From NCBI GenBank assembly GCA_028532915.1, contig JAQQAI010000037.1, positions 1 to 52,054 on the forward strand: a stretch of DNA of 52,054 nucleotides. The letters run 5' to 3'. Origin of the DNA: Sphaerochaetaceae bacterium (GTDB lineage: Bacteria; Spirochaetota; Spirochaetia; Sphaerochaetales; Sphaerochaetaceae). The notes beneath the pieces were generated by a model. That model did no database searches. It had not been told where the DNA came from and saw only the letters and a list, made by a program, of their open reading frames with translations. Below, one piece after another: positions 18,454 to 31,523 of this stretch. Each line of letters begins with the position of its first letter. Within the stretch, counting starts at the first letter, position 1. A program made the position numbers and the translations under genes.

Positions 18454-19728
18454 GTGACTACAAATATTACTAAACACGTCCAATATCCGTTCAACATGAT
18501 GGCTAAACCTATCGGTCCTCTATGCAATCTGGATTGTGAGTATTGCTATTATCTGAAAAAAGAAAAGCTGTTTTCTCATTGTGGCCGCAGTGAGTTCAGA
18601 ATGTCAGATGAAGTTCTCCGGCGGTACATTCAGCAGTATATCGCTTCTCAGCCCGAGAATACACCCGAGGTGATTTTCGGATGGCAGGGGGGAGAGCCCA
18701 CGTTGCTGGGGGTGGAATACTTCGAGAAGGTCCTGCGTCTTCAGAAAAAGTATAATCAGAGAAATATCGTGATCAGAAATGCTCTTCAGACCAACGGAAC
18801 TCTTATCACCGATGAGATGGCCCGGTTCTTCAAGAATAATGAGTTTCTTATCGGAGTGAGTATTGACGGACCTGAGAAGCTTCATGACAGATACCGCAAA
18901 GACCGCAGCGGAAAGGGAAGTTTTTCTTCTGTAATGGCAGGTCTGGAGAAGCTTAAAAGATATGATGTCGATTTCAATACACTCACGGTCGTCCAGAATG
19001 ACAATTCGAATTATCCTGTTGAAGTCTATCAGTTTCTGAAAGAGATCGGTTCACGTTACCTTCAGTTCATACCTATCGTCGAACCGCCTTTACCCGCATC
19101 GAAAAGAATCGCAGGAAAACGGAGTGTCGATCCTCTGATGTGGGGAAAGTTCCTCGTATCTGTGTTCCAAAAGTGGATAGCAACTGATATCCACGGAATA
19201 TCCGTCCAGCATTTCGATGTGACTTTGGGTCAGTATCTGAACATGCCGTCAGCGCTCTGTGTCCACAGTAAATATTGCGGAAAGGCTCTTGTTATCGAAC
19301 ATGACGGGAACATATATAACTGTGACCATTTCGTCAATCCTGAAAACTATGCGGGAAACATCATGAAAGATGATCTTGCCGATATCGTCTCCTCTGATAA
19401 ACAGGTCGCATTCGGGATGAACAAATACGATGGACTGCCTCAAGAATGCCTCAAGTGTCCATATTTGCCCCTGTGTTACGGAGGCTGTCAGAAAGACCGG
19501 CTCGTCGGTGGTAAGAACTGGCTGTGTGATGGTTATAGATATTATTATGAGAAAACCTTCCCGGTATTCTCGGCGATGGCACAAGCTGTGAAGTACCACC
19601 GTCTTCCCTCCGAATTCAGAAATTTCTTGAGGTTGACACCCGAGGTGATGAAACAGACAGGCCGGAACGAACCGTGTCCATGCCTGAGCGGAAAGAAATT
19701 CAAAAACTGTCACGGGAAGAACCTTTAG
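18454..19728 (+). CDS. Anaerobic sulfatase-maturating enzyme (radical SAM/SPASM) with C-terminal SEC-C motif
   Basis: Radical-SAM enzyme that converts the active-site cysteine or serine of sulfatases to formylglycine without oxygen. The SAM cluster motif is C24-x3-C28-x2-C31 (PLCNLDCEYCYY), followed by GGEPTL near 80 and QTNGTLI. The SPASM part has the cysteines of ALCVHSKYCGKALVIEHDGN, YNCDHF and ECLKCPYLPLCYGGCQKDR. A SecA-like SEC-C zinc motif (CPC-x8-CH) ends the chain at GRNEPCPCLSGKKFKNCHG. The start is GTG 18454 behind AGGGAGAAT; the ATG at 18452 is out of frame and runs straight into TGA. No sulfatase lies in the window, so the partner must be elsewhere, or was lost with the fragment at 18303-18443. 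Confidence 0.92.
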   Translation: MTTNITKHVQYPFNMMAKPIGPLCNLDCEYCYYLKKEKLFSHCGRSEFRMSDEVLRRYIQQYIASQPENTPEVIFGWQGGEPTLLGVEYFEKVLRLQKKYNQRNIVIRNALQTNGTLITDEMARFFKNNEFLIGVSIDGPEKLHDRYRKDRSGKGSFSSVMAGLEKLKRYDVDFNTLTVVQNDNSNYPVEVYQFLKEIGSRYLQFIPIVEPPLPASKRIAGKRSVDPLMWGKFLVSVFQKWIATDIHGISVQHFDVTLGQYLNMPSALCVHSKYCGKALVIEHDGNIYNCDHFVNPENYAGNIMKDDLADIVSSDKQVAFGMNKYDGLPQECLKCPYLPLCYGGCQKDRLVGGKNWLCDGYRYYYEKTFPVFSAMAQAVKYHRLPSEFRNFLRLTPEVMKQTGRNEPCPCLSGKKFKNCHGKNL

Positions 19729-19840: not shown

Positions 19841-20935
19841 CTATTCAGTCTTGTACACCAGAACGAGGCCTGATCTCTGGTATACCTGGGCAATCTCAAG
19901 GAGGTCCATCCCTGCAGCTTTAGCTGCGATGAGGTTTGAGACCCAGGTTACACCGAAATCTACCTGGCCTGTATATACGGCAGTGGTTTCGCCGATATCA
20001 CCACCGCCGGGAATGATAGTCACGTTCAATCCGACTTCATCGTAATAACCTTTATCGAGAGCAACATAATAGCCCATGAACTGAGCCTGGGGGAGCCATT
20101 TCAGCTGGACGCTGACGTCTGCTTTTTCGACATCGAATGAACCTTCTGACGCCATAGCCTCTTCCCAGTAGGAAGAATCTCTGATGTCATCAAGTTCCAT
20201 AGCTTCGAGGGCTTTTGCAGCAACAGAGTCTTCGAGTTTGATGTACGTCTTTGCGAGAGAGAGAGTCTGAGCCATGGCATCTTCGTCGATTTCACCATAG
20301 GAGGTCACCGTGTTTCCTTCGGTGTCGGTTTCTACCAGTTTCTTCACTTCACCGGCCATATATGCCTGGTGTTCCGGGGATACTGATGAGCCGTAATTGA
20401 AGACGATTTCGGCAGCTTCTTCAGGATTCGCACATGCATATTCCCATCCTTTCATTGAAGCATAGATGAATGCTTTCACTGTTTCAGGATTTTCTGCTGC
20501 GAATTCAGCTTTGGTGAAAAGGTTATCCTCCAGCATAGCGACACCTTCATCATTCATGTCGATGAAAGATACATCTTCTCCATAGCCGTAGCCGCCGTCG
20601 TAACTGTTCTTTACGAGTCCAAGCTCGTTATAGGTCATAGCTGAAGCAAGCAGGATTGAATCATCATCGAATCCGTCCATATCGAAAGCCTGACTCAGAT
20701 ATGAGGTGGGCAGATCATATTTTGTCAGCAATGCGAGAACCTCATATTCATTACCGAGTCCCCAGTTACCAACCTGACCTTTTGTGGCCGCATCTGTGAG
20801 AATCGATTCTACCGATGCATCCGCTGCATAATAAGAAAATTCCTCGACTGTTTCGGATTCCCCGCCTGCAAAAACACTCGAGACGACTGTCAGAAGCAAC
20901 ACCAAAAGAAATACACTTTTGTTCAAATTTTTCAT
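19841..20935 (-). CDS. ABC transporter substrate-binding protein, NMT1/THI5-like, circularly permuted
   Basis: Exported receptor of the ABC importer encoded upstream. A signal peptide (residues 1-24, ending VSSVFAGG) is followed by what is normally the second part of an NMT1/THI5-type protein: VGNWGLGNEYEVLALLTKY at 55-73, AFDMDGFDDDSILLASAMTY at 83-102, and the helical PETVKAFIYASMKGWEYACA region at 150-169. Only then, from residue 272 to the end, comes the family's usual N-terminal lobe: VSVQLKWLPQAQFMGYYVAL, DKGYYDEVGLNVTIIPGGGD, VDFGVTWVSNLIAAKAAG and QVYQRSGLVLVYKTE. The chain stops exactly where a normal homologue would cross into the second lobe. Frame and length (364 aa) are intact, so this reads as a circular permutation and not a deletion. 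Gene order suggests pyrimidines or their breakdown products as ligands. Confidence 0.88.
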   Translation of the reverse strand: MKNLNKSVFLLVLLLTVVSSVFAGGESETVEEFSYYAADASVESILTDAATKGQVGNWGLGNEYEVLALLTKYDLPTSYLSQAFDMDGFDDDSILLASAMTYNELGLVKNSYDGGYGYGEDVSFIDMNDEGVAMLEDNLFTKAEFAAENPETVKAFIYASMKGWEYACANPEEAAEIVFNYGSSVSPEHQAYMAGEVKKLVETDTEGNTVTSYGEIDEDAMAQTLSLAKTYIKLEDSVAAKALEAMELDDIRDSSYWEEAMASEGSFDVEKADVSVQLKWLPQAQFMGYYVALDKGYYDEVGLNVTIIPGGGDIGETTAVYTGQVDFGVTWVSNLIAAKAAGMDLLEIAQVYQRSGLVLVYKTE

Positions 20936-20985: not shown

Positions 20986-21780
20986 TCAAGGACGACCTTT
21001 CATACTTGCTCTTTCAACTGCCAGAAGGATCAAATACATCGTGACTCCTATCACTATCGCGGCGACTATATAGGCCCAGGCGGTAGCATATTGCGCCAAT
21101 ACGATATTTTCCCTTATCTGCCTTCCGACTCCTATGATGTATTCTGCGAAATATTCGCTCACCATCGCGCTGATGACACTTGCAGGAACACTGACTCTCA
21201 GCGCGGTGAAGATGTAGGGGACACTGTTGGGAACTTTCAGCTTCAGAAATATCGTTCCTTTGGAGGCAGCAAATGATTTCATCAGATCTTCCGAGAAGGG
21301 TTTTAATTCCGTAAATCCCCGGTAGGCGTTCACGCTCATCGAAACAGTACAGGTGATCATAACGACAAGCGTCTTCGCCAGCATGCTTCTCACATTGGGA
21401 TCTCTTGAGAAATCCTTGGTCAGATTGTTCAGGATAGGGGCGATCGCAATGATCGGGATGGCATTGAACGAGGAGACGACCGCAAGCCCTCCCGTACCCC
21501 ATTTCGGAAATGCCGATGCTATGATGGCCAGCAGATAGCCGAGAAGAGACCCCATGAGAAGTCCTCCCAGAGCAACAGTGACAGTTGCCTTCATATTGAT
21601 AAGAATCTTGCCGATGTTCTCCACGATGATATTGAAGATCCTTCCCGGAAGTGGGAGTGTGAATGTGTCTGCATCGATCATCCTGTGAAGCAGCTGCGAC
21701 TGCCAGAGTATGATGACTGCAAGTCCCAGCAGCAATGGAAGGACTACCGATGATAATCTGCTTCTATTGTGTTTATCCAT
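20986..21780 (-). CDS. ABC transporter permease (NMT1/SsuC-type), subunit 2
   Basis: Inner-membrane permease of the binding-protein-dependent type, with about six hydrophobic helices. The EAA-like coupling loop reads MKSFAASKGTIFLKLKVPNS followed by VPYIFTALRVSVPASVISAM around residues 165-205. The 264-aa length is typical. It is 6 nt downstream of the other permease gene, so the importer has a heterodimeric membrane part, as in several pyrimidine, thiamine-precursor and riboflavin importers that use NMT1-type receptors. The receptor gene follows 50 nt downstream. Confidence 0.92.
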   Translation of the reverse strand: MDKHNRSRLSSVVLPLLLGLAVIILWQSQLLHRMIDADTFTLPLPGRIFNIIVENIGKILINMKATVTVALGGLLMGSLLGYLLAIIASAFPKWGTGGLAVVSSFNAIPIIAIAPILNNLTKDFSRDPNVRSMLAKTLVVMITCTVSMSVNAYRGFTELKPFSEDLMKSFAASKGTIFLKLKVPNSVPYIFTALRVSVPASVISAMVSEYFAEYIIGVGRQIRENIVLAQYATAWAYIVAAIVIGVTMYLILLAVERASMKGRP

Positions 21781-21786
21781 AGTCGT

Positions 21787-22605
21787 TCACCTCGCTCCTT
21801 TAGCTCTTTCATGGGGTGAGAAGATCTTTTCGGCAAAGGACATCAGCTTGTAGCTGAGAATCCCGACAGTTGCGCTGAAGAACACGATCTGCCAGAATAC
21901 ATAGATCGACATGGCATGCTTGAGCGACTGGGAAAGCATCGTACCGAGCCCGGCTCCACCCTGCAGGGTGTCGACAAGAATCGATGCGGTGATCGCCATG
22001 GGGGCGGCGATCTTCAGTCCCGAAAAGATATAGGGGATGCTTGTCGGAATAAGCAGTTTCGTATAAATGTTCCAGTTGCTCGCCGCGAGCGACCGCATCA
22101 GATCATATTTCTCTTTTTCCACCGACTTGAGTCCGTCGAGCATATTCGTCGCAACCGGATAGAACGTGAGTATCGCAGCGATGATTATCCTGCTTTTATT
22201 GATGTCCTGTGTGATGGCGAGGACTATCGGAGCCATTCCCAGTATAGGAATCATCTGAATCATCATCAGATATGGAAAAGTCGCTTTCTCTACGGTAATG
22301 AACCTGTGCATCGCAAGTGCCAGAAGAAATCCTGCGCCGGCACCGTAGAGAAATCCTATGCCGGCACGAAGCAGTGTGATACCGGCATTGGTGATGACGA
22401 TCTGAAAAGCAGTCTGCTTATTGCTCACCATCTTGTCACTGAATACCGATTCGACGATCTGACTCAGATGAGGCAGAACGTTCTGCGGGGACCGCTTCGT
22501 CTTCTCCACGACACTCGCCCCGATCTCCCACACGATGATCAGTGCGATGATCCACACGATAATCACAAGTTTATCTGTCAATGAATTTTTCCGGGCCTCT
22601 GTCAT
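21787..22605 (-). CDS. ABC transporter permease (NMT1/SsuC-type), subunit 1
   Basis: Second permease, 272 aa, with a cytoplasmic N-terminus and about six membrane helices. The coupling loop reads MRSLAASNWNIYTKLLIPTS then IPYIFSGLKIAAPMAITASI around residues 180-218. It is clearly homologous to, but diverged from, the neighbouring permease at 20986-21780. The start overlaps the ATPase gene stop (ATGA), so the two are translationally coupled. Confidence 0.92.
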   Translation of the reverse strand: MTEARKNSLTDKLVIIVWIIALIIVWEIGASVVEKTKRSPQNVLPHLSQIVESVFSDKMVSNKQTAFQIVITNAGITLLRAGIGFLYGAGAGFLLALAMHRFITVEKATFPYLMMIQMIPILGMAPIVLAITQDINKSRIIIAAILTFYPVATNMLDGLKSVEKEKYDLMRSLAASNWNIYTKLLIPTSIPYIFSGLKIAAPMAITASILVDTLQGGAGLGTMLSQSLKHAMSIYVFWQIVFFSATVGILSYKLMSFAEKIFSPHERAKGAR

Positions 22606-23390
22606 TCGTATATTCCTTCAAAACTGTGTCTTACTTTAGAAACAAGCGCTGCAAATTCCGCTGTTTCCCGGATAGCCAGGTCTCTGGGTCTTTTCAGACC
22701 GATGTTCACAACAGCCGATACTCTTCCCGGGTGGGGAGAGAGAACGACGACATCATCTGAGAGAAACACTGATTCCTGTATGTTGTGTGTAACGAACAAG
22801 ATGGTCTTCTTTGTTTTCTGCCAAATGCTCAACAGGTCGATCTGCAGTTTCTCCTTGGTGAACTCATCGAGTGCGGAAAAGGGTTCGTCCATCAGCAGGA
22901 TCTCCGGATCCAGCGCCAGGGCTCTGGCGATTCCGACTCTCTGCTGCATTCCTCCGCTCAACTGGTGAGGATATTTCCTGCCGAATTCTGTAAGACCTAC
23001 GAGCTCAAGTACCTCGTCGACTCTTCTGGTCCTTTCTTCCTTCGGCAGTCCGATTACCTCCATCGGCATGCAGATATTTCTTCTTACCGTTCTCCATTCA
23101 TAGAGAACGGGACTCTGGAACACGATTCCGTACTGCTGACTCAATCTGGTCTCTTTCGGTGTTTTTCCTTTGACCGAGATGATACCGCTGCTTATATCCT
23201 GCAGATCGGCAATAGATCTGAGCAGGGTTGTCTTTCCGCACCCCGAAGGACCGAGAAGAGAGACGAATGAGCCCTCTTTTATCGCTAGATTCACATCCTT
23301 CAGTGCCTGAATATCACCTCCGTTATCTTTATCCGGGAAGTTAACGCATAGTCCTTTAATATTTATTTCCGTCTCGTTAGCGTTTGCCAT
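22602..23390 (-). CDS. ABC transporter ATP-binding protein (SsuB/TauB-type)
   Basis: ATPase of the importer, with Walker A GPSGCGKTT near residue 50, Q-loop VFQSPVLYEWRTV, signature LSGGMQQR, Walker B EILLMDEPFSALD and switch histidine FVTHNIQES. The order and 262-aa length fit the nitrate/sulfonate/taurine ATPase family. Three ATG codons are in a row (23396, 23393, 23390); the last one is best spaced from AAGGA and is used here. It is the first gene of the importer operon. Its upstream region holds the three ACATT-N4-AATGT palindromes shared with the divergent degradation operon. Confidence 0.93.
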   Translation of the reverse strand: MANANETEINIKGLCVNFPDKDNGGDIQALKDVNLAIKEGSFVSLLGPSGCGKTTLLRSIADLQDISSGIISVKGKTPKETRLSQQYGIVFQSPVLYEWRTVRRNICMPMEVIGLPKEERTRRVDEVLELVGLTEFGRKYPHQLSGGMQQRVGIARALALDPEILLMDEPFSALDEFTKEKLQIDLLSIWQKTKKTILFVTHNIQESVFLSDDVVVLSPHPGRVSAVVNIGLKRPRDLAIRETAEFAALVSKVRHSFEGIYE

Positions 23391-23647
23391 CATCATTCCT
23401 TACAAGTTTTTTTCGATACTAGACTCTTGCAATTAATGTGCCATCATTCTTTTTTATTCATATTTTTTGCAGATTCAGAGCTGAAATTCATAGTATAAGG
23501 CGTATTTTTTTCCGAAAAAAACAGGACTGAAAAAAATAAAACGCAATAGGGTAATAATTTAGAGGAGCAAAGAGGTGAGGGCACTAAAAGAGAGAAAAAT
23601 TTTTATGATTTTCGTTATTGTATTGAACAGGAAAAGTCAATAAACCT
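23391..23647. other. AT-rich intergenic region between divergent operons, left part
   Basis: No convincing gene. On the minus strand TATACT (23497-23492) is a possible -10 box for the importer operon, with a T-rich and therefore weak -35 region. On the plus strand GAGGAGCAAAGAG precedes a 22-codon GTG frame at 23575-23643 (a basic and hydrophobic peptide); this might be a leader peptide but is too short to support. Base composition is markedly lower in GC than that of the flanking genes. Confidence 0.4.
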
Positions 23648-23959: not shown

Positions 23960-25222
23960 ATGTACACATGCAGCCTGGAGAGGATGACAGACAAGATCGA
24001 GACATTCAGCAGATTCGGTGATGCCGGACATGGAGGAATCACCCGATATACCTTATCTGAAGCAGATATCGCAGCGAGAAACGAATTCGTGAAAAGAATG
24101 GAGAAGATCAAAGCGATAATTGAATACGATGACGTCGCCAATGTCTACGCCACCATCCAGGGCACCGATCCCGATGCGAAAAGGATCGTAATGGGATCAC
24201 ATACAGACTCGGTGAAGAATGGAGGAAACTATGACGGGATTCTCGGTGTCATGTCGGCGATGGAAGTTCTCGAAACGGTCGTCGAGAAAGATATCCCTCA
24301 TACCCATCCTCTTACAGCCATGATCTGGACGAACGAGGAAGGCTCACTGTATCCGCCTGCGATGATGGTTTCAGGTATCGTATGTTACGACTATCTTCCC
24401 GAGAGCATCAAAGAGAAATTCAAGTATGAGAATATGCTCTCTTCTGTCAGTGTTCTCGACCCTTGTGATACCTTCAAAGATGCTCTTGAACGATCGGGAT
24501 TCAAAGGTGATGCGAAAAACAGATTGAATCCCGACAGCTATGAAAGTATGTTCGAGATCCATATCGAACAGGGCCCTATTCTGGAAGATGCCGGAAAGAA
24601 CATCGGGATTGTCGACTGTGTTCTCGGAATGTTCAACTACCGGCTGAGATTTTACGGTCAGACTGTTCACGCGGGAACCTTTCCCATGAATAAACGTCAG
24701 GATGCCCTGTTCGCCGCATCCCAGGCAATCTGTCATCTTCATAAAGAGATAGATGCGCTGGGGTATCCCGAACTTGTGTACACGACAGGAGAGATCGTCT
24801 GTCATCCGAATGTCCACACCTGTGTTCCCGATTATGTGGATTTCTGCATTGATGTGCGCCACGAAAGCGCTCAGGTGCTCGATAAGGTTCTCTCGATCGT
24901 CAAAGGATGTGCTGAAAAAGAGTGGGCCGGCTGTAATTGTGAAGTCGAGAAGATGTGGAACAGAGATACCGTCTACTGGGATAAAACGCTCTTTACCTAT
25001 GCGAAGGAGGCTGCCGAAGAGGTTGATTCCTCTCACATGGTGGTGCACAGCGGTGCCGGTCATGATGCACAGTTCGCAGCCTATATGATTCCGACTACGA
25101 TGCTCTTCGTGCAGTCGAAGGACGGACTTTCACACTGTGAACCCGAGTATTCTACACCTGAGCAGTGCACAGAAGGGGCGACAGTACTGCTCAATGCAGT
25201 CTTGAAAGCCGATAAGAGCTGA
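23960..25222 (+). CDS. M20-family amidohydrolase (N-carbamoyl-beta-alanine/N-carbamoyl amino acid hydrolase)
   Basis: Zinc-dependent amidase of the allantoate/carbamoyl-amino-acid hydrolase branch of peptidase family M20. The metal ligands are visible in order: GSHTDSV, GGNYDGILGV, WTNEEGS, FEIHIEQGP and the C-terminal LSHCEPE. The dimerisation lid carries RLRFYGQTVHAGTFPM, typical of this branch. In this setting the natural reaction is hydrolysis of N-carbamoyl-beta-alanine (or its methyl homologue) to beta-alanine, CO2 and ammonia, the third step of reductive pyrimidine degradation. AAAGGAAG lies before ATG 23960. PreA-like dehydrogenase and dihydropyrimidinase genes follow directly. Allantoate or hydantoin-derived substrates are alternatives. 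Confidence 0.9.
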   Translation: MYTCSLERMTDKIETFSRFGDAGHGGITRYTLSEADIAARNEFVKRMEKIKAIIEYDDVANVYATIQGTDPDAKRIVMGSHTDSVKNGGNYDGILGVMSAMEVLETVVEKDIPHTHPLTAMIWTNEEGSLYPPAMMVSGIVCYDYLPESIKEKFKYENMLSSVSVLDPCDTFKDALERSGFKGDAKNRLNPDSYESMFEIHIEQGPILEDAGKNIGIVDCVLGMFNYRLRFYGQTVHAGTFPMNKRQDALFAASQAICHLHKEIDALGYPELVYTTGEIVCHPNVHTCVPDYVDFCIDVRHESAQVLDKVLSIVKGCAEKEWAGCNCEVEKMWNRDTVYWDKTLFTYAKEAAEEVDSSHMVVHSGAGHDAQFAAYMIPTTMLFVQSKDGLSHCEPEYSTPEQCTEGATVLLNAVLKADKS

Positions 25223-25267
25223 AAGATATCCTCACAATATATATCAGGAAAAAAGAAAAGGAATGCC

Positions 25268-26458
25268 ATGAGTTTACTAGAGACAACCATATGTGATATC
25301 CCGCTGGAAAATCCGTTTATCATAGCATCAGCCTCTCCCTCCGCATCGATAGAGATGATAGAGAAGGCCTTCAGAGCCGGATGGGGCGGGGTGGTCACCA
25401 AAACGATCAAACCCGATTTCATGAAGATCGAAGATGCGCGGCCGCGGTTCAACGTGGTCAAAGAGGGGAAGAAGATCATAGGGTTCGAGAATTTCGAACT
25501 GGTGAGTAAGAAAGACCTTTCCTACTGGCTGAAAGGAATATCGTATCTGAAGAAGACCTACCCGAACAAAGCCGTCATCGCTTCCATCATGGGAGACAGC
25601 AGTCGAGAATCATGGAGTGATCTTGCCCTGCAGGTGGAAAAATCGGGAGCCGATGCAATAGAGCTCAACTTCTCCTGTCCGCACGGGATGCCGGAGATGG
25701 GGGTGGGGGCTGCGGTAGGACAGAACCCGCCGATCATCGAGAAGATCACCCGGTGGGTATCTGAATCGGTGACAGTCCCTGTGATAGTGAAGCTGACTCC
25801 GAATGTGACGAGCATAGAGGAGGCAGCAGCTGCCGCGGCAAGAGGAGGGGCGGATGCCTTTGCCGCGATAAATACTGTTGAGAGTCTGTCCGGGATCGAC
25901 CTGGAGACATTCGATCCTCTTCCGAGTGTCAACGGAAAGTCCACTTATGGAGGTCTTTCCGGGAAGGCCGTGAAACCTATCGGACTGAGAGCTGTATCAC
26001 AGGTCGCACGGACTCATAGCCTTCCCATCATGGGAATCGGGGGAATATCGAACTTCAGTGATGCTCTTGAGTACATCGCTGTCGGAGCCTGTTCGGTCCA
26101 GGTCTGTACCGAAGTGATGATCAACGGTTTCGATATCGTCAAAAAGATGATCATTGAAACAGAAGACTATCTTAGAAGAAAGGGTTTTTCCTCGATTACT
26201 CAGGTTCAGGGTAAAGCCCTTGGGAAACTGACCACACATGAAAGTCTCGTCAAGAATTCCCCTCTGGTTGCCGCTGTCGATACAGCCGGATGCATCGGCT
26301 GCGGCCGGTGTGTGGTTGCGTGTGAAGACGGTGGCTATGGCGCGGTATCACTTGTGGACAAAAAGGCACAGATAGATGAAGGACTCTGTGACGGGTGCTC
26401 GCTGTGCACCCATGTCTGTCCTGCAGATGCATTGAAATTAGTTAAGTTGGAGGCATAA
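25268..26458 (+). CDS. preA: Dihydropyrimidine dehydrogenase, catalytic/Fe-S subunit (PreA-like)
   Basis: Reduces uracil or thymine to the 5,6-dihydro form. Residues 1-310 are a dihydroorotate-dehydrogenase-like FMN barrel: WGGVVTKTI near 40, ELNFSCPHGMPEMGVGAAVGQ at 132-152, KLTPNVTS near 175, TVESLSGIDLET, and MGIGGISNFSDA. The C-terminal ferredoxin domain has two 4Fe-4S motifs, CIGCGRCVVAC and CDGCSLCTHVCP. The cysteine that serves as general acid in mammalian dihydropyrimidine dehydrogenase (ACGQ) reads V150 here (AVGQ). No PreT (NADH/FAD) subunit gene is adjacent, so electrons must come from an unlinked PreT or another donor. GGAATGCC precedes ATG 25268; the dihydropyrimidinase gene begins 1 nt after the stop. 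Confidence 0.9.
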   Translation: MSLLETTICDIPLENPFIIASASPSASIEMIEKAFRAGWGGVVTKTIKPDFMKIEDARPRFNVVKEGKKIIGFENFELVSKKDLSYWLKGISYLKKTYPNKAVIASIMGDSSRESWSDLALQVEKSGADAIELNFSCPHGMPEMGVGAAVGQNPPIIEKITRWVSESVTVPVIVKLTPNVTSIEEAAAAAARGGADAFAAINTVESLSGIDLETFDPLPSVNGKSTYGGLSGKAVKPIGLRAVSQVARTHSLPIMGIGGISNFSDALEYIAVGACSVQVCTEVMINGFDIVKKMIIETEDYLRRKGFSSITQVQGKALGKLTTHESLVKNSPLVAAVDTAGCIGCGRCVVACEDGGYGAVSLVDKKAQIDEGLCDGCSLCTHVCPADALKLVKLEA

Positions 26459-26459
26459 C

Positions 26460-27866
26460 TTGAAGACTATCATAAAGAACGGAAAAGTGATCACGGCCGG
26501 TGACACAATTTTTCAGGACATCCTGATCGAAGACGGGATCATAAAGGCACTGGGAAAGAATTTCAGCGAAGAGGGATGTGAAGTGATCGATGCTGAGGGG
26601 ACATACATACTTCCCGGCGGTATCGATCCCCACACACATCTTGAAATGCCGTTCGGAGGAACCGTAAGTTCGGACGACTTTTACACAGGACACAAAGCCG
26701 CGGCTTTCGGGGGAACCACCTGCCACATCGACTTTGCTCTTCAGACTAAAGGCGATAGCCTGACAAACGGCATCAGAACATGGAAAGAGAAGGCCAAAGA
26801 CAAAGCGGCAATCGACTACAGCTTCCACATCGCCGTGACCGACCCCACAGAGGAGACGATCGAGGAGATTCCGGCAATCGTGAAAGAAGGAGTCACATCA
26901 CTGAAAGTCTTTCTCGCCTACAAGGGTGTATTTCAGGTCGATGACACGGCCTTCATGCAGACGATGACGAAAGCTGCAGAGAACGGGATGCTGACGATGG
27001 TCCATGCGGAAAACGGAGATGCCATCGCGCTGAAGACAAAAGAGCTGCTCGAGGAAGGAAAGACCGATATGAAGTATCACAGTGAGGCCCACTGTGAAGC
27101 CATCGAGGCCGAGGCCATCAACAGGGCCGTATCCTTTGTGGAGATCACGAAGGCTCCGCTATACATCGTCCATATAGCGAGCGGCAACGGTGTGGAAGCT
27201 GTACGGAAGGGAAGGAGAAAAGGGCTGCCTGTCATGGGCGAGACCTGTATACAATACCTCTACATCACAGATGACGCCCTTGATCAGCCGGGCTTTGAGG
27301 GAGCAAAATACATCTGTTCTCCACCCCCGAAAAAAGAAGAGGATAAGAAGGCTATCTGGGAAGGACTTACCGACAAGACCATCCAGACGATGGCTACCGA
27401 CCACTGTCCGTTCTGGTTCGATGGGACGAAAGAGGGGCGGACACCCGGTAAGGAACTGGGGAAAGGCTCATGGGATAAGGTTCCCAACGGTGTGCCCGGA
27501 ATCGAAGACCGCTATCCCCTCTTATGGGACGGAGCCGTAAACACCGGGATAATCACTCCCAACAGGTTCGTGGAACTTACTTCCACCAACCCTGCGAAGA
27601 TATTCGGACTCTATCCCAAAAAAGGGACCATAGCCGTCGGTTCCGATGCTGATATCGTGATCTTCGATCCTGAGAAGAAACACACCATCGAAGCTTCAAC
27701 TCATCATATGAATGTCGATTACAACCTGTATGAGGGAATGACTGTGACCGGCTGGCCTCAGAAAGTGATGGTCAGGGGAAAACTTCTGGTTGATGGTGAT
27801 GATTGGCTCGGAGAAGCAGGTTTCGGCGAGTTCGTGGCAAGAAAGACAGAGAATGAAATCTTATAG
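26460..27866 (+). CDS. hydA: Dihydropyrimidinase (hydantoinase)
   Basis: Binuclear zinc amidohydrolase that opens dihydrouracil or dihydrothymine to the N-carbamoyl-beta-amino acid. The motif order is complete: GGIDPHTHLEMPFGG near residue 60, the lysine that becomes carboxylated in SLKVFLAYKG near 150, HAENGD near 183, the HIASGNG histidine near 240, and the aspartate of ATDHCPFWFDG near 315. The 468-aa length is normal. The start codon is TTG 26460, supported by TTGGAGG 7 nt upstream and by the absence of an in-frame ATG near the conserved N-terminus. It is packed between preA and the iron alcohol dehydrogenase gene. Confidence 0.94.
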   Translation: MKTIIKNGKVITAGDTIFQDILIEDGIIKALGKNFSEEGCEVIDAEGTYILPGGIDPHTHLEMPFGGTVSSDDFYTGHKAAAFGGTTCHIDFALQTKGDSLTNGIRTWKEKAKDKAAIDYSFHIAVTDPTEETIEEIPAIVKEGVTSLKVFLAYKGVFQVDDTAFMQTMTKAAENGMLTMVHAENGDAIALKTKELLEEGKTDMKYHSEAHCEAIEAEAINRAVSFVEITKAPLYIVHIASGNGVEAVRKGRRKGLPVMGETCIQYLYITDDALDQPGFEGAKYICSPPPKKEEDKKAIWEGLTDKTIQTMATDHCPFWFDGTKEGRTPGKELGKGSWDKVPNGVPGIEDRYPLLWDGAVNTGIITPNRFVELTSTNPAKIFGLYPKKGTIAVGSDADIVIFDPEKKHTIEASTHHMNVDYNLYEGMTVTGWPQKVMVRGKLLVDGDDWLGEAGFGEFVARKTENEIL

Positions 27867-27880
27867 ATTAAGAGGTAATG

Positions 27881-28990
27881 ATGATTCAACAATACTATAT
27901 GCCGGTAAAAGTCGTCTCCGGCAGAAACTGCCTGATGCGCAGCAGCAAGACCTTCAGACAATTCGGCACGAAGGCAATCATCATCTGCGGCTACAGTTCC
28001 GCAGAAAAGAACGGTTCTCTGGCCGATGTGAGATGCGCCCTCGAATCTTCTCAGATAGGTTATGAGATATTCAGAGGTATAGCACCGAACCCTACGGTTC
28101 AGCAGGTATTCCAGGTAAGTGAGATATCAAGAGCGAATGATTGCGATTTCGTGATCGCGATCGGTGGAGGATCCGTCATTGATGCAGCGAAGGTCGTCGC
28201 GATTCTGACGAAGAATGATCTGACCGAGGATGAGCTTTTTACACGGCAGGAGTTTGATTCGGTTCTGCCGCTCGTTGCGGTCCCGACCACCGCAGGTACC
28301 GGAAGCGAAGTGACCCAGTATTCGATTCTTACGAATGTTCAAAAAGAGACCAAATCGTTTGTCATCAGTGAAAAGATATTTCCTCAGATGGCCTTTCTCG
28401 ACGGCAAGTATCTGGAGAATCTTCCCGAAGAGACGACGATTCATACCGCGGTAGATGCATTGAGTCATGCTGTGGAAGGATATCTGGCTGTCAGAGCCAC
28501 ATCGCACGGAAGGATTCTGGCTCTCGAGAGTATCAAACTTCTCGCACCGGCTCTGAAAAAACTCTACAAAGGTGAAATTCTTTCGGTTGATGAGCGCGAC
28601 CAGCTACTGTACGCATCTATGCTTGCGGGAATCGTGATCTCTCAAAGCGGTACTACAGCTGTTCATGCGGTGGGGTATTCACTGACCTATTTCAAGCTGG
28701 TGGACCATGGAAGAGCCAACGGACTGCTGATGCCCAGCTATCTCGATTTTCTCAGCGGAGAACGGAAGAACGAAGTTCAGACGATTCTCGATGCTCTGGG
28801 ATTATCATCCGTACAGGAGCTGAGAACAATGTGTTCAAAACTGCTGACTCCGCAGCCGCTGACCGAAGAAGAGATCGTGAAGTTTTCCCAGATCGCAATC
28901 GAAGCGAAGAATATCGAGAACACCACTCCGCGACCGACAATCAAAGTGCTTAAGAGAATGCTGAAAGATGCTTCAGAATTAGGAGAATAG
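27881..28990 (+). CDS. Iron-containing alcohol dehydrogenase, probable malonate-semialdehyde reductase
   Basis: Group III (Fe-type) alcohol dehydrogenase. The NAD(P) motif IAIGGGSVIDAAK lies near residue 95 and TTAGTGSEVTQYS near 140. The metal site is D-H-H-H: TAVDALSHAVEGYL near 195, AVHAVGYSLTYF near 265 and VDHGRANG near 280. The length is near the usual 380 aa. ATG 27881 is better spaced from AGAGG than ATG 27878. Since the next gene is a class III transaminase that could turn beta-alanine into malonate semialdehyde, the likely task is reduction of that aldehyde to 3-hydroxypropionate, which would also dispose of electrons in an anaerobe. That role is inferred from position. Confidence 0.87.
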   Translation: MIQQYYMPVKVVSGRNCLMRSSKTFRQFGTKAIIICGYSSAEKNGSLADVRCALESSQIGYEIFRGIAPNPTVQQVFQVSEISRANDCDFVIAIGGGSVIDAAKVVAILTKNDLTEDELFTRQEFDSVLPLVAVPTTAGTGSEVTQYSILTNVQKETKSFVISEKIFPQMAFLDGKYLENLPEETTIHTAVDALSHAVEGYLAVRATSHGRILALESIKLLAPALKKLYKGEILSVDERDQLLYASMLAGIVISQSGTTAVHAVGYSLTYFKLVDHGRANGLLMPSYLDFLSGERKNEVQTILDALGLSSVQELRTMCSKLLTPQPLTEEEIVKFSQIAIEAKNIENTTPRPTIKVLKRMLKDASELGE

Positions 28991-30316
28991 ATGATGAATA
29001 GTGAAAAATTGTTTCAGCTCGATAGAGAGCATGTCGTATACAGCTGGAAAAATCAAAAAGATGCAGCTCCGATCATGATGGAAAAAGCAGACCGCATCTA
29101 CATGTGGGATGTCGACGGAAAACGGTATACCGATTTCTCCTCAGGTCTTCTGAATGTGAATATCGGGCATAATAACGAACATGTCAAAAAGGCGATGAGA
29201 GAGCAGATGGAAAAGGTTTGCTATGTCGGAACCGGTTTCGGCACCGAAGTAAAAGCTGTTCTGTCCAAAATGATCAGCGAGGTGACTCCCGGCGACCTCG
29301 ATTATGTCTTCTATACGAACGGGGGTGCGGAAGCTGTAGAGAACGCCATCAAGGCTGCAAGAGCATACACCGGCCGACACAAGATCTATTCCAGATGGAG
29401 ATCCTACCACGGAGCGACCGCGGGAGCGATCACACTCACCGGAGACCCCAGAAGATGGGCAGCCGAACCGGGAATTCCCGGAGTTGTGAAATATTTCGGC
29501 CCCTATGGTTATAACTGCCCTTTCGGTACCGAAAATGCTGAAGAATCGGGTCAGAAGGCCCTCGAGATGTTGAAAACCCAGGTAATGCTCGACGGTCCCC
29601 ATACGGTCGCAGCCATCTTTATGGAGCCCATCGTCGGCACGAACGGTATTATCATCCCGACTGAAAGCTACGTGAAGGGTGTGAGAGAACTGTGTGACGA
29701 GTACGGTATACTCCTTATAGCCGATGAGACGATGTCCGGCTGGGGAAGAAGCGGGAAGTGGTTCTGCATGGAACATTTCGGCGTCGTTCCCGACATCATG
29801 ACAACAGCTAAAGGGGTTACTTCGGGATATGTTCCTCTGGGATGCATGATCTGGAGCAAAAAGATCTGGGAATATTTCTGGGATCATCCGTTCATGGGAG
29901 GACTCACCTACGGCGGACATGCTCTTGCCTGTGCTACTGGAATCGCCAACATCGAAGTGTACAAAGAGGATAAGCTCATCGAGAATTCCGAGAATCTTGG
30001 AAATTACCTTGAGAAGAAACTTCTGGAACTGAAAGAGAAACACCCCTCGATCGGTGATGTGAGATGTAAGGGGCTGTGGGCATGTGTCGAGCTGACAGCA
30101 GACAGAAAGACAAAAGCCCCATTGGCAGGGTTCAACAATTCCATCAGAAATGTTGCAGGTCCTCTGATGAAGATTCTCTATGATGAAGGGCTGTACACCT
30201 TCTGCAAGTGGGATTTCATATTCCTGAGTCCTCCGCTGTGTATAACCAGAGAAGAGATTGACGAATCGCTGGAAAAACTCGAGGTGGGATTGAGATACAC
30301 AGACTCTCTGCTGTAG
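28991..30316 (+). CDS. Class III aminotransferase, probable beta-alanine:2-oxoacid transaminase
   Basis: PLP fold type I, class III (omega) aminotransferase. Visible features: MWDVDGKRYTDFSSGLLNVN near 38-57, YTNGGAEAVENAIKAARAYT near 105, RSYHGATAGAITLTGD, LLIADETMSGWGRSGKW near 240 with the cofactor-binding aspartate, and the Schiff-base lysine in TTAKGVTSGYVPLG near 278. At 441 aa it is complete. ATG 28991 and ATG 28994 are both possible behind AGGAGA. As the last gene of the pyrimidine operon it most simply transaminates beta-alanine (or 3-aminoisobutyrate) to malonate (or methylmalonate) semialdehyde. A hairpin terminator follows at 30338-30382. Confidence 0.9.
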   Translation: MMNSEKLFQLDREHVVYSWKNQKDAAPIMMEKADRIYMWDVDGKRYTDFSSGLLNVNIGHNNEHVKKAMREQMEKVCYVGTGFGTEVKAVLSKMISEVTPGDLDYVFYTNGGAEAVENAIKAARAYTGRHKIYSRWRSYHGATAGAITLTGDPRRWAAEPGIPGVVKYFGPYGYNCPFGTENAEESGQKALEMLKTQVMLDGPHTVAAIFMEPIVGTNGIIIPTESYVKGVRELCDEYGILLIADETMSGWGRSGKWFCMEHFGVVPDIMTTAKGVTSGYVPLGCMIWSKKIWEYFWDHPFMGGLTYGGHALACATGIANIEVYKEDKLIENSENLGNYLEKKLLELKEKHPSIGDVRCKGLWACVELTADRKTKAPLAGFNNSIRNVAGPLMKILYDEGLYTFCKWDFIFLSPPLCITREEIDESLEKLEVGLRYTDSLL

Positions 30317-30337
30317 ATATGATCCAGTGATAATGAA

Positions 30338-30382
30338 AAGCCTCTTCTGTCCTGAACATTGTGGAAGAAGAGGCTTCCTTTT
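30338..30382 (+). terminator. Terminator of the pyrimidine-degradation operon
   Basis: AAGCCTCTTC (30338-30347) pairs with GAAGAGGCTT (30367-30376); TCC (30350-30352) with GGA (30363-30365) extends the stem. CCTTTT follows. It stands 22 nt behind the aminotransferase stop. Confidence 0.75.
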
Positions 30383-30468
30383 GTGTTCATGTTCCTATGT
30401 ATTCCCCCGTAGAATTCTCTTGTGAAGCATTTCGGTGACATTCGTGCAGAGTATGCTTTCTTACCCGT

Positions 30469-30497
30469 TTGACATAGGATGGACTGTTATCTGATAA
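30469..30497 (+). promoter_or_regulatory. Promoter of the D-2-hydroxyacid dehydrogenase gene
   Basis: TTGACA (30469-30474), 17-bp spacer, TGATAA (30492-30497; GATAAT with an 18-bp spacer), about 58 bp before the start codon. This shows that the gene is a unit separate from the pyrimidine operon. Confidence 0.6.
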
Positions 30498-30554
30498 TAA
30501 ACTATCTCTTCTTGCGTTCGTATCATCAGAGAAGTCACTCAGGAGGTGTTTTAC

Positions 30555-31523
30555 ATGAAGAAGGTCAGAACTCTTGTCCTCTGCCGGCTGACAGAGACCG
30601 AGAAGTCCAGAATTTCCCGGTTTTCCGATAGGCTTGAATTCACATTCAAAGATATCGAAAAGGTGAATGTCACACAGAAAGATGTGCAGGAAGCCGAGAT
30701 CATCATCGGGTATCCGCCGAGAAAATACCTTAAAGAGGCCCGGAATCTGAGATGGCTTCAGACGCTCTCTTCGGGTGTAGACCGCTATCTTTCCGACAGT
30801 ATTCTCCATCCTGAAGTAATCGTCACCAATGCCCGGGGCTCTTATGGAGCGGCCCAGAGCGAATTCATGTTCGCGATGCTTATCTCATTGATGAAGAAAC
30901 TTCATATCTATCGAGATAACCAGAAGCAAAACAGATGGCATGATGAAGGCAACGTGATGATGCTCAAAGGATCCACCGCCCTCGTCATCGGACTGGGCGA
31001 TATCGGAAGCAGGTACGCGAAACTGTTGAAGGCCTTCGGTGTGTATGTCATCGGGGTGAGAAGGGACCCTTCCAAAAGGTGCGAATGGGCCGATGAGATT
31101 CATTCTTTCATAAATCTTGATACTCTTATCGGTAAAGCTGATATTATCTCGATGGTCGTTCCTGCGACACCCGAAACAAAGAATCTCATGAACTCTGACC
31201 GGATCGGTCTGATGAAAAAGGGTTCTGTGTTCGTTAATACCGGAAGAGGGATATCTGTTGATAATGAAGCTCTCTGTGATGCTGTCGAGAGTGGGAATAT
31301 AGCGGGAGCCGCCCTTGATGTCTTCGATGTGGAGCCGCTTCCTCCCGGTCACAGGATATGGAAGAATGAAAAGATCCTGATAACTCCCCATATCGCGGGA
31401 CTCGAGTACATGGAAGACAACTGGAAGCATACCCTTGATCTGATTGAAGACAATCTGGAAGCATTCTGTGAAGGTAAAGCGATGCGGAATGTGGTAGACC
31501 GGTCTCTTTTCGAGTTCCTCTAG
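30555..31523 (+). CDS. D-isomer-specific 2-hydroxyacid dehydrogenase
   Basis: NAD(P)-dependent dehydrogenase of the phosphoglycerate/glyoxylate/hydroxypyruvate reductase family. The Rossmann motif is VIGLGDIGSRYAKLLKAFG near residue 140. The catalytic arginine lies in FVNTGRGISVDNEAL near 230, the glutamate in ALDVFDVEPLP near 260 and the histidine in ITPHIAGLEYM near 283. At 322 aa it is complete. ATG 30555 is preferred over an in-frame GTG at 30546 because AGGAGG (30541-30546) fits it. The substrate is not readable. Its stop lies only 3 nt from the trpA stop on the other strand, so the two transcripts must overlap. Confidence 0.9.
   Translation: MKKVRTLVLCRLTETEKSRISRFSDRLEFTFKDIEKVNVTQKDVQEAEIIIGYPPRKYLKEARNLRWLQTLSSGVDRYLSDSILHPEVIVTNARGSYGAAQSEFMFAMLISLMKKLHIYRDNQKQNRWHDEGNVMMLKGSTALVIGLGDIGSRYAKLLKAFGVYVIGVRRDPSKRCEWADEIHSFINLDTLIGKADIISMVVPATPETKNLMNSDRIGLMKKGSVFVNTGRGISVDNEALCDAVESGNIAGAALDVFDVEPLPPGHRIWKNEKILITPHIAGLEYMEDNWKHTLDLIEDNLEAFCEGKAMRNVVDRSLFEFL

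What the first reader, a model, noticed from the sequence alone, without database searches (positions are those of the whole stretch)
19841..20935. Natural circular permutation of an NMT1/THI5-type ABC binding protein
Sequence: behind an intact signal peptide, residues 40-262 correspond to the usual second part of the family (GNWGLGNEYEVLALL, SAMTYNEL, the C-terminal helical part), and residues 272-364 to the usual first part (VQLKWLPQAQFMGYYVALDK to QRSGLVLVYKTE). The protein stops exactly where a normal homologue continues into its second lobe, and begins shortly before that junction. The frame is continuous and the neighbouring permeases and ATPase are intact, so decay is unlikely. Knowledge: NMT1-type receptors run first lobe then second lobe. 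Inference: tandem duplication followed by trimming moved the termini to the hinge while retaining export, a rare, functional re-wiring of a Venus-flytrap receptor.
Basis: partly seen in the sequence, partly recalled or inferred. Interest (0 to 1): 0.88.

Follow-up and report, generated by a model that had tools for sequence, protein, structure and literature searches.

The report
Naturally rotated pyrimidine-import receptor family
A bacterial nutrient-catching protein has had its front and back ends swapped by evolution; the swap happened once, is shared by at least 80 spirochaete and clostridial genomes beside genes for digesting uracil-type bases, and un-swapped relatives survive in the same gene cluster, so the effect of the swap can be tested directly.

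Summary
The 364-aa ORF at 19841-20935(-) matches Pfam NMT1 (105 bits) in swapped order: residues 284-363 hit profile positions 2-81, and an earlier stretch hits 158-216. It is no artefact. About 80 relatives (64-83% identity) in Bacillota and Spirochaetota, including isolates and a complete chromosome, share the order. Two spirochaete genomes carry normal-order orthologues (57% and 52% identity over the rotated sequence) in the same ABC-transporter/pyrimidine-catabolism cluster. Trees of the receptor, of each half separately, and of the permeases plus ATPase all make the permuted set one clade, with normal order on the outside: one circular permutation. The cut is at the first lobe-crossing strand; the old ends are joined by a roughly 10-residue linker; nothing else is lost. 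An AlphaFold2 model (pLDDT 90, pTM 0.86) is collinear with OpuAC, a known permuted type II binding protein, while normal-order 4nmy aligns over one part only. 77 of 82 permuted loci have a dihydropyrimidinase/hydantoinase homologue within about 5 kb, so uracil/thymine import is likely. Natural permutation is known for OpuAC and Treponema MglB-2; it is new here for the NMT1/THI5 family. Ligand binding and any functional effect of the swap remain untested.

The parts
19841..20935 (-). circularly permuted NMT1/THI5-type substrate-binding protein (364 aa)
20864..20935 (-). signal peptide (about residues 1-24); no Cys/lipobox in this copy
   Evidence: sequence; for relatives; exact cleavage site not computed
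20528..20815 (-). lobe 2, which is the middle part of a normal homologue (about residues 41-136), now first
   Evidence: alignment to normal-order orthologues; model secondary structure
20510..20527 (-). remaining covalent lobe-to-lobe crossing strand (about residues 137-142)
   Evidence: model strand E137-142; assignment as hinge crossing inferred from homology
20150..20509 (-). second part of lobe 1, i.e. the normal C-terminal part (residues 143-262)
20120..20149 (-). new linker joining the old C-terminus to the old N-terminus (about residues 263-272; mostly 10-13 residues across the family)
19844..20119 (-). first part of lobe 1, i.e. the normal N-terminal part (residues 273-364), ending at the first crossing strand 357-363
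20986..21780 (-). ABC permease 1
21787..22605 (-). ABC permease 2
22602..23396 (-). ABC ATPase (taurine/nitrate/sulfonate/THI5 class)
23960..25222 (+). hydantoinase/carbamoylase-family amidase (N-carbamoyl-beta-alanine hydrolase candidate)
   Evidence: TIGR01879 above cutoff
25268..26458 (+). dihydropyrimidine dehydrogenase PreA-type
   Evidence: NF006183 above cutoff
26460..27866 (+). dihydropyrimidinase (D-hydantoinase)
   Evidence: TIGR02033 above cutoff
27878..28990 (+). iron-type alcohol dehydrogenase homologue (malonate-semialdehyde reduction candidate)
   Evidence: sequence; homologues at permuted loci; name from general knowledge
28991..30316 (+). class III aminotransferase (beta-alanine transaminase candidate)

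Best explanation
The ORF encodes the extracytoplasmic receptor of an ABC importer that most likely brings uracil/thymine-type bases (or their dihydro forms) into the cell for the reductive pyrimidine pathway encoded next door. It descends from a normal-order NMT1/THI5-type receptor of the same gene cluster by one ancient circular permutation. The chain was opened at the end of the first lobe-crossing strand (normal '...GLVLVAKKE|SGVASGKDITNATKVGNW...'), and the old C-terminus was joined to the old N-terminus by a linker of about 10 residues. SHOWN by computation: swapped order, orthology with un-permuted receptors, single origin, conservation in two phyla, intact fold in the model. INFERRED: each lobe is now a contiguous segment joined by one covalent crossing instead of two; the Venus-flytrap still closes on its ligand and docks on the permeases, because the residues conserved between normal and permuted forms lie in both parts; the ligand is a pyrimidine; the route was duplication followed by trimming.
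For: Swapped Pfam order with both parts significant, against one collinear stretch in normal orthologues. Around 80 independent genomes share the order at 64-83% identity, including isolates and a complete chromosome. Normal-order orthologues L141 (57%) and L142 (52%) align in one HSP to the rotated sequence and sit in the same ATPase-permease-permease-receptor-dihydropyrimidinase-preA cluster. Trees: permuted rows form one clade (100/99), nested inside normal-order rows; each half alone gives the same grouping (88/90 and 100/99); the permease+ATPase tree agrees (SH-aLRT 99). 77 residues are conserved between the permuted family and the three closest normal-order forms, spread over both parts. 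AF2 model pLDDT 90, pTM 0.86. Collinear match to OpuAC over residues 44-364 (Z 11.2, rmsd 4.8, 211 aligned), while normal-order 4nmy aligns only over 35-262 (Z 11.3, rmsd 3.7, 200 aligned). Context: 77/82 permuted loci have the dihydropyrimidinase/hydantoinase homologue and 66 the PreA homologue within about 5 kb; normal-order relatives on plasmids of S. meliloti, Qingshengfaniella and Klebsiella also sit beside dihydropyrimidinase and/or PreA genes.
Against: No binding or transport data. The model was built from the permuted family's own alignment and its coordinates could not be measured here, so hinge geometry is inferred from secondary structure and homology. Ligand identity rests on gene context only. 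No duplicated intermediate was found, so the route is unproven.
Confidence: 0.9

Rival explanations
1. Assembly artefact or decaying gene: a misassembled tandem copy or scrambled pseudogene.
For: The window's genome is a draft in 96 contigs.
Against: The same order is found in about 80 independent assemblies at 64-83% identity, including isolate genomes and a complete chromosome; open frame throughout; 136 positions conserved in at least 97% of permuted rows.
Confidence: 0.01
2. Fusion chimera: the two parts come from two different paralogous receptors joined tail to head, not from one rotated gene.
For: Both parts could in principle come from different NMT1 paralogues, which are common.
Against: The half-A and half-B trees both put the permuted clade beside L141 (half B beside L141 and L142); identities to L141 are 71% and 54% for the two parts, both far above other homologues.
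Confidence: 0.03
3. The permuted receptor serves a thiamin-precursor (HMP/FAMP) or other NMT1-type ligand rather than uracil/thymine.
For: Nearest solved sequence relatives are the thiamin-bound 4nmy, FAMP-binding 3ix1 and yeast THI5.
Against: Reductive pyrimidine catabolism genes adjoin nearly all permuted loci; no riboswitch family was found in the window; homologues in unrelated phyla keep the same context.
Confidence: 0.1
4. The permutation was selected as an adaptation to membrane tethering (the hypothesis proposed for MglB-2, PMC4990184).
For: Most permuted members carry a lipobox by a simple pattern (73 of 82).
Against: Normal-order relatives L175-L178 are also lipobox proteins, and several spirochaete permuted members, including this one, have none, so the two traits are not tightly linked.
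Confidence: 0.15

Closest known systems
NMT1/THI5-like ABC receptors (Pfam PF09084; ThiY 3ix1, 4nmy)
   Same: Same sequence family by profile, type II bilobed fold, partner permeases and ATPase of the same class
   Different: Order of the two parts is swapped; ligand probably a catabolic pyrimidine base
OpuAC of Bacillus subtilis (2b4l/2b4m), in a circular-permutation family with ProX, molybdate-binding proteins and CysB (CPSARST, PMC2395249)
   Same: Type II binding protein with natural circular permutation; collinear with the model over 44-364
   Different: Not among the PDB sequence hits; binds betaines; presumably an independent permutation
Treponema pallidum MglB-2/Tp0684, 'Type Ic' (PMC4990184)
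   Same: Natural circular permutation of an ABC receptor, distribution in treponemes and Gram-positives
   Different: Type I fold, glucose ligand; the authors describe an added fourth hinge crossing, whereas here one of two crossings is opened (inferred)
Normal-order pyrimidine-cluster receptors (L141, L142; S. meliloti pSymB UIJ94200.1)
   Same: Orthologous or homologous receptor and gene cluster
   Different: Un-permuted

Membership tests
NMT1/THI5 receptor family (PF09084) | Profile match above gathering score | tested here: met
   105 bits against 20.5
NMT1/THI5 receptor family (PF09084) | Collinear first-lobe/second-lobe order | tested here: not met
   Order swapped; met by L141, L142 and L002. 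It is a permuted derivative of the family.
NMT1/THI5 receptor family (PF09084) | Type II bilobed fold | tested here: met
   Model pLDDT 90; matches 4nmy (Z 11.3, rmsd 3.7, 200 aligned) and OpuAC (Z 11.2, rmsd 4.8, 211 aligned)
Naturally permuted type II receptor (OpuAC-like topology) | Strand order rotated so that the normal second lobe comes first | tested here: met
   Collinear structural match over model 44-364
Naturally permuted type II receptor (OpuAC-like topology) | Sequence homology to OpuAC / betaine site | tested here: inconclusive
   No OpuAC among PDB sequence hits; binding site not examined
MglB-2 'Type Ic' permuted receptors | Type I (cluster B) fold | tested here: inconclusive
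   The best structural matches are type II binding proteins; absence of type I hits is not proof
Reductive pyrimidine catabolism gene cluster | PreA/PydA, dihydropyrimidinase, carbamoyl-amidase together | tested here: met
   window; relatives
Reductive pyrimidine catabolism gene cluster | Receptor binds pyrimidines | not testable with these tools
   Needs a binding assay

The most novel reading that the evidence does not exclude
The single permutation changed hinge behaviour (one covalent crossing instead of two), and so altered affinity, closing dynamics or permease docking in a way that was selected and spread horizontally between Bacillota and Spirochaetota: an independent, convergent re-wiring of the type II receptor to the OpuAC-like topology, with the un-permuted orthologue still living in the same gene cluster.
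Probability: 0.3. Interest if true: 0.78.

Novelty: new variant of a known kind. Interest (0 to 1): 0.64.

Why it matters
Natural circular permutations are usually recognised between distant proteins. Here the permuted and un-permuted receptors are 52-57% identical orthologues in the same gene cluster, and the change maps to a single branch on congruent trees. That makes a clean natural experiment on whether chain order and hinge connectivity matter for binding-protein dynamics and ABC transport. The family occurs in gut bacteria such as Ruminococcus bromii and is scored as two broken NMT1 fragments by linear profiles. The loci carry PreA- and dihydropyrimidinase-type genes of the kind that act on 5-fluorouracil in Anaerostipes hadrus (PMC11036815).

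Tried and rejected
Misassembly or pseudogene (rejected). Two-source chimera (rejected). Thiamin riboswitch control (no Rfam match in the window). Tethering as a sufficient cause (not supported). Literature searches found no description of a permuted NMT1/THI5 receptor in the open-access library; subscription papers are not covered. Foldseek, which keeps sequence order, put OpuAC first and did not list normal-order NMT1 structures in its top 50. No fused or tandem intermediate was seen among the loci (permuted open frames 364-477 aa). An attempt to name the L141 organism by paper search failed.

Full report
OBSERVATION. The ORF at 19841-20935(-) is a continuous 364-aa frame. Pfam NMT1 matches it at 105 bits in two stretches: residues 284-363 to profile 2-81 and, tested alone, the part before residue 275 to profile 158-216. 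phmmer against PDB sequences gives the same crossing: 4nmy_A 7-76 matches query 273-344 and 173-245 matches query 118-188. The genome's own NMT1 paralogue on contig C84 shows the normal order.

NOT AN ARTEFACT. The search for related loci returned 80 loci (134 confirmed candidates, best 80 kept), nearly all in Bacillota and Spirochaetota, collinear with the window protein in single alignments from about residue 35-50 to 364 at 64-83% identity. They include isolate genomes and a complete chromosome (NZ_CP121445.1). The end '...QRSGLVLVYK' is shared, followed only by short tails, and the start of the folded part '...A..GKVGNWGLGNEYE' follows a signal peptide or lipobox plus a variable linker.

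THE UN-PERMUTED STATE SURVIVES. A rotated query (residues 272-364 followed by 40-262) found normal-order homologues. L141 (386 aa frame) aligns in one HSP to rotated positions 2-315 at 57% identity, and L142 (370 aa) at 52%. Both lie in ATPase-permease-permease-receptor-dihydropyrimidinase-preA clusters with carbamoylase, aminotransferase and alcohol-dehydrogenase homologues. The comparison defines the event. The normal chain '...SGLVLVAKKE SGVASGKDITNATKVGNW...' is opened, giving the new C-terminus '...SGLVLVYKTE' and the new N-terminal fold start 'ASVESILTDAATKGQVGNW'. The old end '...YDPSYWEEAVK' (permuted '...RDSSYWEEAMA') is joined through 'SEGSFDVEKA' to the old start 'DVSVQLKWLPQAQFMGYY'. 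Linker lengths are mostly 10-13 residues across the family. More distant normal-order relatives occur in the class of L016 (L175-L178, 36-46%) and on proteobacterial plasmids beside dihydropyrimidinase and/or PreA genes (37-43%).

ONE EVENT. On an ML tree of rotated sequences (103 rows) the 85 permuted rows form one clade (100/99), with L141 and then L142 outside it and the remaining normal-order receptors further out. A reduced set without the very long branches gives the same result, and trees of the two parts taken separately also keep the permuted rows together next to L141 (first part 88/90, second part 100/99), which argues against a two-source chimera. A tree of the concatenated permeases and ATPase also groups the permuted operons (SH-aLRT 99). 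Since normal-order rows surround the clade, normal order is ancestral (inference from rooting by more distant NMT1 proteins). Spirochaete members fall in several places among Bacillota, which suggests horizontal transfer; direction not tested.

STRUCTURE. AlphaFold2 with 66 family members gives pLDDT 90, pTM 0.86; only the signal peptide and linker are poorly predicted. Foldseek's best hits are OpuAC. VIA-align matches OpuAC 2b4m collinearly over model 44-364 (Z 11.2, rmsd 4.8, 211 residues), but thiamin-bound 4nmy only over model 35-262 = chain 95-301 (Z 11.3, rmsd 3.7, 200 residues), as expected for a rotation. OpuAC is itself reported in a circular-permutation family of type II proteins (2b4l in PMC2395249).

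FUNCTION. In the window the receptor, two permeases and ATPase lie divergent to carbamoylase, PreA, dihydropyrimidinase, alcohol dehydrogenase and aminotransferase genes, a reductive pyrimidine pathway. Among 82 permuted loci, 77 have the hydantoinase/dihydropyrimidinase homologue and 66 the PreA homologue within the roughly 5 kb flanks, some of which are truncated. 77 positions are identical between the permuted family and the three nearest normal-order receptors, in both parts. The best inference is a uracil/thymine-type importer receptor whose fold and site survived rotation. No thiamin or other riboswitch was detected.

COMPARISON AND NOVELTY. Natural permutation of ABC receptors is known in type I (MglB-2, PMC4990184; also treponemes and Gram-positives) and type II (OpuAC). 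No report of a permuted NMT1/THI5 receptor was found in the open-access library. The membrane-tethering idea proposed for MglB-2 is not sufficient here: lipobox and non-lipobox forms exist on both sides of the permutation (by a simple pattern). The finding is therefore a new variant of a known kind, unusually clean because permuted and un-permuted orthologues share one gene cluster.

Noticed in passing
trees (L005-L009, L049/L051, L044/L046/L055/L067/L073/L077, L084/L085/L144): Permuted operons of spirochaetes fall in several separate places among Bacillota, suggesting repeated horizontal transfer.
   Followed up: partly
L176 and L179 (same genome G862): One genome carries both a permuted receptor with a pyrimidine cluster and a normal-order homologue (about 37%) with its own transporter genes, without the pyrimidine enzymes nearby.
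   Followed up: partly
window 23960-27866 compared with L011-L083: Transporter genes are mostly 57-87% identical to relatives, but PreA and dihydropyrimidinase are mostly only about 40-45% identical outside close spirochaetes, so the clusters look mosaic (enzymes replaced around a conserved transporter).
   Followed up: no
window 25268-31523: PreA-type dihydropyrimidine dehydrogenase (396 aa) without an obvious PreT partner among the neighbouring ORFs; PreA homologues in relatives L141/L142/L144/L145 are about 510-530 aa frames.
   Followed up: no
L034 and L056: Two ORFs match permease 1 next to the permuted receptor, a possible permease duplication or split gene.
   Followed up: no
window 18454-19728: Anaerobic sulfatase maturase (radical SAM, TIGR03942 above cutoff) with a C-terminal SEC-C-like motif (NEPCPCLSGKKFKNCHGK) next to the receptor.
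   Followed up: no
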